A stretch of 64,000 nucleotides of DNA from the NCBI GenBank assembly GCA_025331435.1, contig JAIWNI010000114.1:24826-88825 (forward strand), read 5' to 3'. Source of the DNA: Choanephora cucurbitarum (lineage: Eukaryota > Mucoromycota > Mucoromycetes > Mucorales > Choanephoraceae). Under the pieces are notes generated by a model that had not been told where the DNA came from, searched no databases, and saw only the letters and a list, made by a program, of their open reading frames with translations. Below are positions 3,842-61,633 of this stretch, one piece after another (within the stretch, counting starts at the first letter, position 1; each line of letters starts with the position of its first letter). A program made the translations under genes and the position numbers.

Positions 3842-3872
3842 TACAGTGTGAACCGAAATAAGCTGCGGATTT
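3842..3872 (+). repeat. Left terminal inverted repeat of the Tc1/mariner element (with TA duplication)
   Basis: Starts with the TA target base pair followed by CAGTGTGAACCG. It matches the reverse complement of 4639-4669 at 29 of 31 positions. Confidence 0.88.
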
Positions 3873-4667
3873 ACAAACTCCACGATTTAAACACGTAACC
3901 CATTGTTGTTCTTTGTTAGTCTTTCCATCACTCTTTTCTCAATAAACATACGAAAATAAGCACTTCAACAGTTATCCAAAGAAGCTAGCAAGCATCTTTC
4001 CGAATAAAGTTATAATAGATGAGCTGGCGCTTTTATGTATCAAAATAACATTGCTCAGATCGCCAGAGATCTTAACCTTCCTGAATCAACCGTACGAGTA
4101 GCTCATGAAAGATTTCAGCAAACAAAGACCACTCTTCCTTAAGCTTCAAGCGGGAGGAAAAGACTTCTTTCTCAGATTGATTTGAACGCGTTTGAGACAA
4201 GCGTTCGTCGTCGACCTGCTGAATCAATCAGGGCTCAACATCGTCATTTTTGAGTTCTGGCAAGAAAGTCTCTTTGACCGCTTTTCGAGTAGCCTTGGGT
4301 CGTATGAACTTCAAATCGTGTGTCGCAACAATAAAGCCAGCTCTGAAGCCCAGACATAAAGACTCACGTTTGGCTTGGGTTCTGTGATGGTATGAGGATG
4401 CTTTCATGCAAATGATGTTGGCCCTCTTGTGGTACAACATGGATCAATGGATCAAGAAGTATTTGTTCAATGTTTGGTTGATTGTTGCCTTCCCTGGATT
4501 GAAAAAGAGTCTGTAAAGACCGATATTGACTACATATTGCAGGAAGACATTGCTCCATGCCATGTAGGAGCATACTCCAGGTGTTTTAAGATGAACATCC
4601 TTCATGGTGCAAGGTACTCCATTAAATTTAATTTTTAAAAATCCGCAACTTATTTCCGTTCACACTG
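3844..4667 (+). mobile_element. Internally deleted Tc1/mariner element with intact TIRs and TA target duplication
   Basis: The element begins CAGTGTGAAC and ends GTTCACACTG, and is flanked on each side by TA, the duplicated target of Tc1/mariner elements. The 31-bp ends (3842-3872 and 4639-4669, counting the TA) match as inverted repeats with two mismatches. Total length is 824 bp, much shorter than the roughly 1.3-1.6 kb of complete elements. The interior holds pieces of a Tc1-type transposase on the plus strand in several frames. It is therefore a defective copy that could move only if a full element supplies transposase. Confidence 0.88.
4030..4636 (+). pseudogene. Decayed Tc1-type transposase
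   Basis: Pieces of a Tc1 transposase can be read in order on the plus strand. First comes a helix-turn-helix like piece (IARDLNLPESTVRVAHERF, about 4054-4110). A segment ending KPALKPRHKDSRLAWVL follows, about 4258-4385. Then a piece beginning VMV and a stop, GCFHANDVGPLVVQHGSMD, runs from about 4384 to 4446. The last is a DDE-like piece around EDIAPCH near 4543-4563. The join at about 4385 drops the section that normally holds the first catalytic aspartate. A TGA at 4393-4395 sits where the family has tryptophan. Several frame changes and stops occur elsewhere. The gene is clearly dead. Confidence 0.75.
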
Positions 4668-4669
4668 TA
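4639..4669 (-). repeat. Right terminal inverted repeat of the Tc1/mariner element (with TA duplication)
   Basis: Ends CGTTCACACTG followed by TA. It pairs with 3842-3872, with two mismatches in 31 positions. Confidence 0.88.
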
Positions 4670-56150: not shown

Positions 56151-57649
56151 ATGTTCAATCCTCATACACATCAGCCTTCGAGCTTTGACGTGGCTAATGA
56201 GCAGCAGCTGCCGTCTTTCATAAAGCCTGAGTCTGAGAGACCTGACTTCTTTAGTAAACCCTCAACCCATTTGTTTTCTGACGAATCGGTTGAGTGTCCA
56301 AAAAAGAAAAGGTCTGAGGATTATACACCTTTCCAGCATATCCCTTCCTCCTCTTCTATTCCAGTCATCGAAACTTCAACCTACTCAGACAATGAGGTTT
56401 TAGAGCTTGCACTTAAAGCCAAAAAATTTGATCCGAAAAACCCTTGCCTCTTTGGTCATAGGCCTCCCAAACCCCCTACTGAAGAGTCTATGAAACGACA
56501 TAGACCACCAGATTTCGATGAGACTGTACGTAAATATTTTAGTGGAAACTCGAAGAAGCCAAAGATATTCGAAGATTATTTGCCTCAACATAACAACAAC
56601 AATAACAACAACAACAGCAATAGCAACAACAACAACACTAACTTGCTTAGTCTCATTGCTCCACCTACTAATGTCAAGATACCACAGCAGCCACCAATGT
56701 TTCCAGAAAATGCATTTCTCCATGCTCCACTTGTAGCTCAGCAGCCCACAGCGATGGATGAAGATCGATATCAAACTCCTTACAGGAGCAAAGGTGTTTT
56801 GAGTGTTTATGATGATTCAGTGGTATTGAAAAAATACATGTTGAAATTAAAAAAAAGACAAATGCCATGATTAAGTTATTTTGGGTGAAAAAACACACAA
56901 AACAAAAAAATCAACTCATACCTCTTTTTATATATCTTATAGTCAATATCCGGCAAGAAGCAATACTTGTTCGAAAATACCTCTAACAATAAAATTGACG
57001 ATGATATGTAAGTGGCGAAGTTTAAGATAGGTGGTTTTTCTTGTTGCTCCTTGTTAATGGTGCTTTCTGTATAGCCCTACTGTGGTGTCGAGGCGTAAGG
57101 AGGGAACGTTTGCAGGTTTTGATAGATCTAAGCATTTGAACGATGCTTTCTTGTCTTCAGAGTCCAATGCACAGATCAAGCCAGTTGACAGGTAAAGTAT
57201 ACTGGGCTTAGAGGCTTCTTTTCTTTCTTCTTTCCTTTTTTTCCTTTGTTCCTTCTTTCTTTCTTTCCTTTTTCTGATCATTGCACAGTAGACCAGAAAG
57301 AGAGATCAACAAGAACAAGGTGAGGATCTTTGGCTACGACCCAGACGAAGCCAACCAGGTGGTCCAGTTCTTTTCGAGTTTAGGCGAGATGGTAGAGCAG
57401 CCTCACTGTGAAGCCAACTTGACAGTGTTGCATTATCACAGTGCCGAGGCAGCTGCCAAAGCGATTGAGTACAACGGGACCGTATTCAACCAGAACCGAG
57501 TGATTGGCGTGACATACAACGGGCTACCAAAAGACGTCGGACTGAAAGTACACGACAGTGGAGCCGAGATCTATCATTTCAATTCAGATGAACAAAAACA
57601 GAACAACAGCTTTTTCAAGAAGATAAAGTCCATCATGTTTGGGAATTGA
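56151..57649 (+). CDS. Nucleoporin NUP35/NUP53-like, copy A (MPPN RRM domain)
   Basis: Exons: 56151-56822, 56943-57007, 57075-57191, 57289-57649, giving 404 residues. The N-terminal half is disordered and contains DFDETVRKYF (121-130) and an asparagine run (148-164). The atypical RRM of Nup35/Nup53 (MPPN domain) starts near residue 286 with NKVRIFGYDPDEANQVVQFF and includes VFNQNRVIGVTYNG. The protein ends SFFKKIKSIMFGN, an amphipathic, membrane-binding type of end known for Nup53. It would sit in the inner ring of the nuclear pore and bind the membrane. The end of exon 1 is the least certain point (56819 or 56822). From 57126 to 57576 the DNA is a near-exact inverted copy of part of the convergent paralog. 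Confidence 0.85.
57126..57576 (+). repeat. Left arm of near-perfect inverted repeat (NUP35-like RRM region)
   Basis: 451 bp running from within exon 3 through the intron into exon 4 of copy A. Compared with the reverse complement of 58274-58736 I find two base changes in exons (57163 region and 57564 region) and a 12-bp length difference within the CT-rich intron. Sequence on both sides diverges abruptly. Confidence 0.92.
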
Positions 57650-58113
57650 ATGAAATCACTCCTTCCGCTTTTTTGCTAAAAACCTTAGAATATAATAGAT
57701 AACCAAGCTGTGTTTATAGAATAAATTAGATTTTGCTACTTTGTAGATCTTATTTTGATCTCACCCAAGGAAAGCTATTGAATAAGAGTCAGTTATTGTA
57801 AGAGAGAAGTAACAGATTTGAGTGTATAAGCAGTTTTTGATTGGCTCTAGCAAGAAAAAAAGGATCTGCCTCACCTGCTATTGATACAAGAAAACCAAAT
57901 CATAATGTAATATATTGGAAAGAAGCTAGAAAACGATAATGTATAAATCTCTTATAGTAGTAACAAATCAAAGCCATATTTTGATCTCTCTAAAGAAGTT
58001 TTCAAAGAGAGTTGCAGCAATTCTCGAGAAGAAGATAAAAAAGGAGATGGTCAATAGATAAAAGCACTGCTTTCTTCCAAAAACGTTTCTGTTTTTTATT
58101 TTTATTTTTATGT
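57650..58113. other. Spacer between the convergent nucleoporin genes
   Basis: 464 bp of AT-rich DNA between the two stop codons. It serves as 3' flank of both genes and is the unique loop inside the inverted repeat. No open frame. Confidence 0.6.
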
Positions 58114-59546
58114 CTACCATCCAAACATAGCTGTCTTCAACTTATACAATAAACTATCATTTTGTCGTTGAAGTTGTTGCTGTTGTTGCAATTGTTCCCG
58201 TTGTTGCTGTTGTAACTTTTGTTGTTCATTTTGTTTGAGTTGTTGTTCTTTTAATACCAAGTAAAGGTTGGGGTGATAGATCTCAGCTCCACTGTCGTGT
58301 ACTTTCAGTCCGACGTCTTTTGGTAGCCCGTTGTATGTCACGCCAATCACTCGGTTCTGGTTGAATACGGTCCCGTTGTACTCAATCGCTTTGGCAGCTG
58401 CCTCGGCACTGTGATAATGCAACACTGTCAAGTTGGCTTCACAGTGAGGCTGCTCTACCATCTCGCCTAAACTCGAAAAGAACTGGACCACCTGGTTGGC
58501 TTCGTCTGGGTCGTAGCCAAAGATCCTCACCTTGTTCTTGTTGATCTCTCTTTCTGGTCTACTGTGCAATGATCAGAAAAAGGAAAGAAAGAAAGAAGGA
58601 ACAAAGGAAAAAAAGGAAAGAAGAAAGAAAAGAAGAAAGAAAAGAAGCCTCTAAGCCCAGTATACTTTACCTGTCAACTGGCTTGATCTGTGCATTAGAC
58701 TCTGAAGACAAGAAAGCATCGTTCAAATGCTTAGATGATGAAATGCCTGTTTCTGAGATAGATCGTTTAGGAGTTGCCTGATTCTCAGGTTTCTTTAGTG
58801 TTCTAAAGAACCCATGAGGTGATGCACTAGAGCTTGCAAATATGCCTTTATCCACTTTTGGTGCTACATTACGACTACAACAAAAGAAATACATGAACGA
58901 TGAGCAACGTCTCGATTTCAGTACAACTGTATGTCTAATTTACATAGTGCTTTCAACTCTAGTTTCTGTGGTATCTTCGAAAAGTCGTTTTTTACTGGGC
59001 TTTGTGTCTCTTGCAGTCTATAGAAACACTCTTTTGAGCATTACGGTCATAGTGCTTAGATAGTATAGGTCTTACCACTAAAGAATTGTTAGCATCACAT
59101 AAAAAGTGAGGTAATGTGATGGGTCTTCGACTATGAAGACGAGCAGGACCGAATGTTTCGTTAGAAGTGGCTGTCTTTTGTGTTGAATTGTTAAGTAAGG
59201 CGGTATTTGAGGTACGCGTCAACGAGGGATCAGAATCGGCTGTGTTGAAAAGAGAGCGGCCTGAAGGTGAGCTGGAAAGAAGCATGTTGGATGAAGCAGG
59301 TGGAGGTAGTTGATCTTCAGGGCTTCTAGGTTTGAAATCCTGTCTTCTAGTTGTTTCGGGGAATACCTTTCGAATGGTATCATCAAATTCACCTGTTCTT
59401 GGTTGTTCAGAGGAGAACAGACTAGGTGGTTTTTGGTTGAACAGATAAGGTTTTTCAGAGTCGAGTTTCTTTAAAGGTGGTAAGGCAAATATATCCTTAT
59501 TTGACGTGTTGGAAGCTGGGGGTTGAATTGTATTAAGACTGGACAT
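58114..59546 (-). CDS. Nucleoporin NUP35/NUP53-like, copy B (MPPN RRM domain)
   Basis: Exons on the minus strand: 59546-59076, 59017-58944, 58874-58671, 58561-58114, giving 398 residues. The N-terminus shares only short motifs with copy A (EFDDTIRKVF at 53-62, then KKRLFEDT like KKQYLFENT). The RRM is identical in protein sequence to copy A over about 90 residues. After it comes a glutamine-rich tail (about residues 352-382, QQQ and QLQQ runs) that copy A lacks, and the end SLLYKLKTAMFGW, again amphipathic. It would have the same inner-ring role. Because N- and C-termini differ while the RRM is identical even at DNA level, the two genes are old paralogs with a homogenised core. Confidence 0.85.
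58274..58736 (-). repeat. Right arm of near-perfect inverted repeat (NUP35-like RRM region)
   Basis: 463 bp pairing with 57126-57576. The extra 12 bp lie in the CT-repeat part of the intron (109 nt here, 97 nt in copy A). The spacer between arms is 697 bp. Confidence 0.92.
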
Positions 59547-60360: not shown

Positions 60361-61239
60361 TTATTCAGAGGTGTCTGAAACCTATAAGAAATAGTTTCAG
60401 TTTGAATGTAACTTTTTCGGTAAGAGATTGCTTGATCTTACCCTTTGATCATCATAGTTGAAGTCCATTACATAATCTGAATTTGCATGAAGTGCCTCTC
60501 TTTCATATCGTTCCTTTTGTTTGGAACTCAATCGATTCCATCTGTCATGAGCAATTGAGACAACATCGGACAGTTCAATATGTTCATCACCACTCAATTC
60601 ATTCTTGAGTCTTTTTAGGAATTCATCAAATGCTGTCACTGGTTTAGCTGGAACGTATTGTCTTCGCTTTCTGTGATGACTTCGATGTCTTTTGAAAGAT
60701 GGAGGGTTCTGAACTGTCTTGGTAACTGTGGTTGTGGTTGTTGTGATGGTTGTGCCTAATTTCGTCATGTGTGATGTTCCATCTATTTAATGTTTTAGTA
60801 TTGCACAATTGCATAGACTCTCTGCTTTTTTTTTTTACCTTGATCATCATACCCATAATGAATAATGATAGGTGTAGATAGAGGTACACCTCGGGCAGTT
60901 GCTATAGCTCTCTGTAACAACTATCACTATCCTTAGTTAGCTAATTCAATACGATATCACTAAGCAACAATACCTACTCGTCTGTGTCCCCTTTTAACAT
61001 TAAGGGATATCAAATCTGATTCGGTTATATCAAACAGCTTCAGAAAAAAAAAGTTTTTTTTTTTGGTTTTAGTGCGTTATTTTTCTTTCAATTTCTCGCA
61101 GTAATTTTTTTTTGTTTAAATGGCTTACAGATAATAGTCGATCGAACCCTTCATTAACGAAAGTATCATAATATTGTGAGAGCTTATAAGTGGTAAGGAA
61201 TTGCCGTAGTTGTTCAAGTAAAAATTCTCTGTTATCCAT
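60361..61239 (-). CDS. SAM-domain plus HMG-box protein, probable DNA-binding regulator
   Basis: Exons on the minus strand: 61239-61129, 61037-60978, 60911-60839, 60782-60442, 60381-60361, giving 201 residues. Residues 1-63 read as a SAM domain: FLTTYKLSQYYDTFVNEGF, then LFDITESDLISLNVKRGHRR. A linker with a threonine run (92-100) follows. An HMG box spans about residues 120-190: KRRQYVPAKPVTAFDEFLKR, then VVSIAHDRWNRLSSKQKERY. The last exon is only 21 nt. SAM domains mediate protein assembly and HMG boxes bend DNA, so a transcription regulator is likely. The order of small exons was fixed by phase and domain continuity. The neighbours tptA and rnhA of the Mucorales sex locus are not seen, so this is not called sexM or sexP. 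Confidence 0.78.
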
Positions 61240-61436
61240 GATTCTGTAATGGCTGACTTCTTTTCTTTAAGAAAAATAAAGAAAAAAAAAGTGTAAGGGG
61301 TGGAAGGAGAAAGGTTTTACAAGCAACTCTGTCAGGTATAAAAGCTGTTGTTGTTCGACTTTATTCTTGCTAAGAAGTAAAACTTAAAAAAATAGAAGGG
61401 AAAAAGAAAAAAAAGAGAGAGTTAAAAATAAAACTA

Positions 61437-61470
61437 AAAGCCTAAAAAAAATTAGGCTTTATTTTTTTTT
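61437..61470. repeat. Hairpin followed by a T run
   Basis: AAAGCCTAA (61437-61445) pairs perfectly with TTAGGCTTT (61452-61460) around an all-A loop, and about ten T follow. It looks like a terminator hairpin but is in a eukaryotic context, about 200 bp upstream of the SAM-HMG start codon. Confidence 0.5.
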
Positions 61471-61633
61471 TACAGAATAAACGTTAATGCTGTTTAGGAA
61501 CTTCCTATTTCGACCAATCAAATACTGCATTTTCTGTTTCAATCTATCGCATTTTGAAATGCTCAAACAAAATATAATTAGTCAAATAGCACCTAGTGTC
61601 AATTTTTCCGTTAATAATTTATGTAAAAAAATT

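What the first reader, a model, noticed from the sequence alone, without database searches (positions are those of the whole stretch)
57126..58736. Almost perfect 450-bp inverted repeat made by the RRM ends of two convergent NUP35-like genes
Two nucleoporin genes face each other. Their N-terminal halves share only short motifs, and their C-terminal tails differ. Yet from the middle of exon 3 through an intron to the end of the RRM they are the same base for base apart from two changes and a 12-bp indel in the intron. Identity of an intron and of silent sites next to diverged flanks points to recent gene conversion (or repeated conversion) between inverted paralogs, not to a fresh duplication. 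A palindrome with 450-bp arms and 0.7 kb spacer is also prone to hairpin formation and inversion of the spacer, and the convergent transcripts would form long double-stranded RNA, which Mucorales can feed into RNA interference.
Basis: partly seen in the sequence, partly recalled or inferred. Interest (0 to 1): 0.85.

Follow-up and report, generated by a model that had tools for sequence, protein, structure and literature searches.

The report
Palindromic nucleoporin pair sharing one domain
Two neighbouring fungal nuclear-pore genes that face each other appear to keep copying one shared domain from each other while the rest of each gene evolves separately, so the copied stretch is alike within a species but differs between species.

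Summary
Confirmed. In Choanephora cucurbitarum two convergent, long-diverged NUP35-like genes (A, B) share 57126-57576(+) / 58736-58274(-): 449 of 451 aligned bases match, plus a 12-bp intron indel. In Blakeslea trispora the orthologous pair also has RRMs identical to each other but not to Choanephora's: of 89 RRM columns 66 are invariant, 23 sort by species, 0 by gene, while N-termini sort by gene. This is repeated gene conversion rather than one recent duplication. In-tract exon-4 GC3 (0.625) is extreme for the sampled DNA, as GC-biased conversion predicts, but the tract's introns are not GC-rich. Gene B of strain KUS-F28377 carries gene A's tail, as spacer inversion predicts; that short-read assembly probably cannot resolve the arms, so it is only a lead. 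A second inverted gene pair with a homogenised 5' block lies in 240 kb sampled from contig C223. The double-stranded-RNA idea is mostly wrong: both mRNAs carry the arm in the same sense. The closest precedent found is the Saccharomyces flip/flop inverted repeat. New member of a known kind.

The parts
56151..57649 (+). Gene A, NUP35-like, exons 56151-56822, 56943-57007, 57075-57191, 57289-57649
   Evidence: Splice-site model (its exon 4 was written one base too long) translates to P0001, 404 aa; PF05172 at residues 291-362
58114..59546 (-). Gene B, NUP35-like, exons 59546-59076, 59017-58944, 58874-58671, 58561 (or 58558)-58114
   Evidence: Splice-site model equals P0005 (397 aa) but for one residue at the exon 4 acceptor; PF05172 at residues 256-327
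57126..57576 (+). Arm in gene A: last part of exon 3, intron 3, exon 4 through the RRM
   Evidence: 449 of 451 aligned bases identical to the other arm
58274..58736 (-). Arm in gene B: the same block, with 12 extra bases in the intron
   Evidence: in-tract GC3 0.585 over 118 codons (0.602 in A)
57577..58273 (.). 697-bp spacer with the two different C-terminal tails, stop codons and 3' regions
   Evidence: AATAAA at 57720 (+) and at 58095 and 58101 (-)
57577..57649 (+). Tail of gene A, ending ...MFGN; the same tail is joined to gene B in KUS-F28377 (P0003)
58114..58273 (-). Tail of gene B, Gln-rich, ending ...MFGW

Best explanation
The inverted repeat is the footprint of repeated non-allelic gene conversion between two old, convergent NUP35-like paralogs. 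A four-exon gene was duplicated before Choanephora and Blakeslea split (shown by N-terminal orthology; the way it was duplicated is not known). The N-terminal parts and tails diverged until they hardly resemble each other. The RRM block stayed alike enough to pair, so that a break in one copy can be repaired from the other, within one chromosome or between sisters (inferred), and the block is reset to identity time and again (shown for two lineages at protein level, at DNA level for the window alone). A crossover in place of simple conversion would invert the 0.7-kb spacer and exchange the two tails in frame (inferred; one unverified candidate).
For: Intron and silent sites identical between arms but for 2 synonymous changes and one indel, with 46 of 180 aligned residues shared upstream. 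Same exon number and phases in A and B. Blakeslea pair: 89 of 89 RRM residues identical to each other, 66 of 89 to Choanephora; 23 of 23 variable columns sort by species, while N-terminal columns sort 16 by gene, 0 by species, 2 cross. Tree tests reject gene grouping for the RRM and species grouping for the N-terminus (six-row N-terminal tree). Both KUS genes read L where both window genes read F at one site of the block. GC3 in the tract is extreme for the sampled DNA. A second homogenised inverted pair in 240 kb. Same mechanism argued for Saccharomyces inverted repeats (passages).
Against: No DNA of Blakeslea or KUS-F28377 was at hand, so silent-site and intron identity is shown in the window alone. 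Linkage in Blakeslea is inferred from an equal contig length, and P0006 is a partial record: one column after the counted block the two Blakeslea proteins differ (T/S) and P0006 ends soon after. Introns in the tract are not GC-rich (0.351 and 0.339 against 0.233-0.388 in the other four), against a general GC-biased process. The direction of copying is not known.
Confidence: 0.9

Rival explanations
1. One recent partial inverted duplication (for example by template switching) put the RRM block of one gene onto the other in Choanephora alone.
For: Near-identity including the intron would fit a single recent copying event.
Against: The N-termini show that both full genes are older than the split from Blakeslea, and Blakeslea also has identical RRMs of another sequence; at least two events would be needed, with edges in the same exon. 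A copying event that replaces the homologous block is conversion in effect.
Confidence: 0.05
2. Assembly artefact: one arm was copied in place of the other's true sequence.
For: 450-bp near-identical arms are hard for short reads; in KUS-F28377 gene A breaks off at the end of exon 3. How the window's assembly was sequenced was not found.
Against: The arms differ at three places, and Blakeslea and KUS-F28377 assemblies repeat the pattern with their own sequences.
Confidence: 0.03
3. Purifying selection alone keeps the two RRMs alike, for example because the two proteins dimerise through them.
For: Yeast and vertebrate Nup53/Nup35 RRMs form homodimers (passages of PMC6881172).
Against: Selection on protein does not keep silent sites and an intron identical, nor change both copies alike in each genus. 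The conserved Trp needed for dimerisation in a vertebrate homolog aligns with Leu in gene A (that this is the Trp meant rests on my recall of its numbering). Selection may still favour converted copies.
Confidence: 0.01

Closest known systems
Saccharomyces chromosome XIV flip/flop region with homogenised inverted repeats (PMC9731477; outline with abstract and passages seen)
   Same: Inverted gene copies kept alike within species by gene conversion across a genus; paralogs closer than orthologs; inversion of the region between is explained as a by-product.
   Different: There 4.2-kb repeats flank 24 kb and hold whole genes; here the arms are about 450 bp, cover one domain plus an intron of otherwise diverged genes, and the spacer holds the two 3' ends. 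Inversion is shown there, not here.
S. cerevisiae Nup53 / Nup59 (passages of PMC8700311)
   Same: Two Nup35-family proteins in one fungus, with a C-terminal amphipathic helix.
   Different: I know of no conversion between them and did not test it. Here the pair is adjacent and inverted, and a third, more canonical paralog lies on contig C223.
Y-chromosome palindromes of primates (search listings only; otherwise recalled)
   Same: Arm-to-arm gene conversion in inverted repeats, with GC-biased conversion discussed.
   Different: Arms there are far longer and hold whole genes (recalled); here one block inside two genes.

Membership tests
Concerted evolution by ectopic gene conversion | Paralogs more alike within a species than orthologs between species, in the converted block alone | tested here: met
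   RRM 23 columns by species and 0 by gene; N-terminus 16 by gene, 0 by species, 2 cross
Concerted evolution by ectopic gene conversion | Silent sites and introns identical in the block, sharp edges to diverged flanks | tested here: met
   in the window's genome; not testable in Blakeslea (no DNA)
GC-biased gene conversion | Raised GC at silent sites and in introns of the block | tested here: inconclusive
   GC3 0.625 in tract exon 4 (0 of 357 windows reach it; 2 of 1630), but introns in the tract not raised
Recurrent inversion between inverted repeats (flip/flop type) | Both orientations of the spacer found | tested here: inconclusive
   P0003 of KUS-F28377 has gene B's front with gene A's tail; MiSeq assembly with 400-bp insert setting may have joined it wrongly
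NUP35/Nup53 nucleoporins | Nup35-type RRM | tested here: met
   PF05172, 51.1 and 51.3 bits against a cut-off of 24
NUP35/Nup53 nucleoporins | Conserved Trp of the RRM dimer | tested here: not met
   Leu in gene A (alignment to 4lir), the same residue in B; the C223 paralog keeps Trp. Lowers the claim of a canonical dimer, not of family membership by RRM
NUP35/Nup53 nucleoporins | C-terminal amphipathic membrane helix | tested here: inconclusive
   Tails end FFKKIKSIMFGN and LLYKLKTAMFGW, similar by eye; structure model too poor to use (mean pLDDT 38.8)

The most novel reading that the evidence does not exclude
The palindrome is a naturally flipping cassette: the converting arms also cross over, so that two nucleoporins exchange their C-terminal tails (FGN against FGW) by DNA inversion and populations hold both states. 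More broadly, Choanephora may have many inverted neighbouring paralogs in which one exon block is kept identical by conversion.
Probability: 0.25. Interest if true: 0.75.

Novelty: new member of a known kind. Interest (0 to 1): 0.52.

Why it matters
It is a compact natural case in which one domain of a nuclear-pore gene pair evolves in concert in two genera while the rest evolves apart, with edges that can be mapped to the base. A second case in a 240-kb sample suggests that inverted neighbours may convert often in this fungus; one literature search for Mucorales and gene conversion listed 12 papers, none about such a pair by title and start of abstract. If the spacer flips, DNA inversion would shuffle the ends of two pore proteins.

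Tried and rejected
Double-stranded RNA from convergent mRNAs: rejected as stated, on orientation (full report). Codon bias of highly expressed genes as the cause of the high GC3: one actin-family open frame has GC3 0.46 (L027) and the rest of A (0.42) and B (0.30) is not raised; this weakens it, no more. Structure prediction of gene A with six sequences gave no usable model (mean pLDDT 38.8), so no fold search was made. Relatives outside Choanephora and Blakeslea: three protein searches found none; they need shared 5-residue words, one search scored only the 7990 best candidates, and no search was left for the C223 paralog, so absence from other Mucorales is not shown. A treekit tree of the RRM stopped because only three different rows remained; fixed trees were compared instead. 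The HsbA family search of the genome finds one of the two genes of the second case, under its cut-off. Papers: passages of PMC5238444, PMC6881172 and PMC8700311; outline with abstract and passages of PMC9731477; all others search listings only. Nucleoporin + gene conversion + paralogs + Nup53 gave 0 papers; Blakeslea trispora + genome + Choanephora + PacBio gave 0; no paper on the window's own assembly was found.

Full report
What is there. The window is C18:24826-88825 of a 33.4-Mb assembly. Its two genes are proteins P0001 and P0005, which the source names as Choanephora cucurbitarum and lists with a contig of 88,825 bases. Gene A (+) and gene B (-) converge. My models, four exons each with the same phases, reproduce P0001, and P0005 but for one residue. 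Both carry the Nup35-type RRM. The arms align over 451 bases with two mismatches and one 12-bp indel. Both mismatches are synonymous C/T changes (Ser TCC/TCT, Ala GCC/GCT; read from the sequence), and the proteins are identical over the 21 and 89 columns compared in the tract. Upstream of it they share 46 of 180 aligned residues. A DNA search of the assembly returned no third copy.

Why conversion, and why repeated. Three protein searches gave four relatives besides the window's own two: P0004 and P0006 of Blakeslea trispora, P0002 and P0003 of C. cucurbitarum KUS-F28377. Both Blakeslea proteins are listed with a longest contig of 495,455, from which I infer linkage. Upstream of the tract each Blakeslea protein is the ortholog of one window gene: A-A 84/189, B-B 138/228, against 46/180 for A-B within Choanephora and 46/146 within Blakeslea; among the cross-species A-B values Blakeslea A to Choanephora B is 48/137. 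In the RRM the two Blakeslea proteins are identical (89/89) and differ from both window proteins at 23 of 89 columns. All 23 variable columns sort by species and none by gene. Of 135 gap-free N-terminal columns 23 are invariant, 16 sort by gene, none by species, 2 cross and 94 fit none of these. Tests of fixed trees on the four proteins reject species grouping for the N-terminus (delta logL 54.7, AU 3.6e-7) and gene grouping for the RRM (delta logL 106, AU 3.4e-11). A tree of all six N-termini divides A from B with support 100/100, and holding the four Choanephora rows together is rejected (AU 6.6e-12). P0002 has no RRM and was left out of the RRM work; P0003 was left out of the site counts and fixed trees. 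So the pair is older than the split of the genera, and the RRM block has been made alike since, in both lineages. In Blakeslea the alike block starts somewhat later in exon 3 (17 of 22 residues alike where Choanephora has 21 of 21); one column past the counted block the Blakeslea proteins differ (T/S), and P0006, a partial record, soon ends. The two C. cucurbitarum assemblies repeat the pattern at one site: both window genes read F, both KUS genes L, while the A N-termini differ at 23 of 256 residues.

Composition. GC3 of the 96 in-tract codons of exon 4 is 0.625; A outside the tract has 0.42, B 0.30, and the RRM exon of the third paralog on C223 0.30. Of 357 half-overlapping 96-codon windows from 64 open frames of 180 codons or more, in the window without this locus and 200 kb of C223, none reaches 0.625. 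With denser windows, frames of 150 codons or more and 240 kb, 2 of 1630 do, both from one frame. GC-biased conversion would predict this. Against it, the tract's introns (0.351, 0.339) are no richer than the other four (0.233, 0.388, 0.362, 0.348). I treat the GC signal as suggestive only.

A second case. The 240 kb of C223 (1-240000) were taken because that contig holds the third NUP35 paralog, not for repeats. With copies at most 15 kb apart, one inverted repeat was found: C223:59391-59694 and 61213-61516, 304 bp at 99%, with a weaker 79-bp, 87% extension; a DNA search finds it at only these two places in the assembly. It covers exon 1, an intron and exon 2, up to the next donor, of two head-to-head genes. 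Their 3' exons are related but clearly diverged; one has a HsbA match under the cut-off (E 2.2e-6), the other a marginal one (0.0099). In-tract GC3 is 0.588 over 51 codons (37 of 1971 sampled windows reach that) against 0.389 and 0.459 in the 3' exons. One case gives no genome-wide rate, but the NUP35 pair is not alone. The same scan shows four close direct repeats, among them identical 314-bp copies flanking a retroelement-like open frame.

Spacer inversion. If the arms cross over, the spacer flips and the tails change places. Both flipped joints read in frame. P0003 of KUS-F28377 is such a protein: gene B's front with gene A's tail, whereas gene A carries the FGN tail in both the window and Blakeslea. 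But that genome was assembled from MiSeq pairs with an insert setting of 400 bp and a simulated jumping library (passages of PMC5238444), and its gene A stops at the end of exon 3 and is listed with another contig. A wrong walk through a collapsed arm would give the same protein. I cannot tell the two apart.

RNA. A and B each encode the RRM in sense, so their mRNAs carry the arm in the same polarity and do not pair there. Read-through from one gene across the other's arm would give a hairpin RNA. AATAAA lies at 57720 for A and at 58095 and 58101 on the minus strand for B, which fits separate 3' ends but proves nothing.

Function. Nup53/Nup35 RRMs dimerise, and dimerisation matters for pore assembly (passages of PMC6881172 and PMC8700311). 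The paper names a Phe and a Trp as essential in a vertebrate homolog. By alignment the Trp of the GNW motif is Leu in gene A, while the C223 paralog keeps it and matches solved Nup35 RRMs better (best E 1.2e-5, against 0.093); that the GNW Trp is the one meant rests on my recall of its numbering. I infer that C223 holds the more canonical gene and that A/B are a derived pair. Whether keeping the block alike is selected, or simply follows from nearness and similarity, is open.

Verdict. The kind is known: the Saccharomyces flip/flop region is the closest case found (outline with abstract and passages of PMC9731477). One search for Mucorales and gene conversion listed 12 papers, none about such a pair by title and start of abstract.

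Noticed in passing
L012:9391-9694 and L013:1213-1516 (C223:59391-59694 and 61213-61516): Second inverted pair: head-to-head HsbA-like genes with a 304-bp, 99% identical 5' block including an intron, and diverged 3' exons.
   Followed up: partly
window 58556-58561 and 57289-57294: Exon 4 has tandem acceptors (CAGTAG): the same DNA is annotated with the first acceptor in P0001 (VDSRP) and the second in P0005 (VDRP).
   Followed up: no
L017:4096 to L018:664 (C223:104096-110664): LTR-retroelement-like unit: identical 314-bp direct repeats 6 kb apart with a 1507-aa open frame between them that looks like a pol polyprotein.
   Followed up: no
window 3842-4669: Matches C223:72682-73687 in two pieces at 83-86%; its ends look like inverted copies of one another, perhaps a decayed DNA transposon.
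   Followed up: no
L004:3778-4188 (C223:244277-244687): Third Nup35 RRM exon of the genome, on another contig, with the conserved Trp and an FGW end; a more canonical NUP35 than A or B.
   Followed up: partly
L032:3469-5202 (C223:223469-225202): The only sampled open frame with a 96-codon stretch of GC3 above the tract's (0.635); looks like a multi-pass membrane protein, identity not checked.
   Followed up: no
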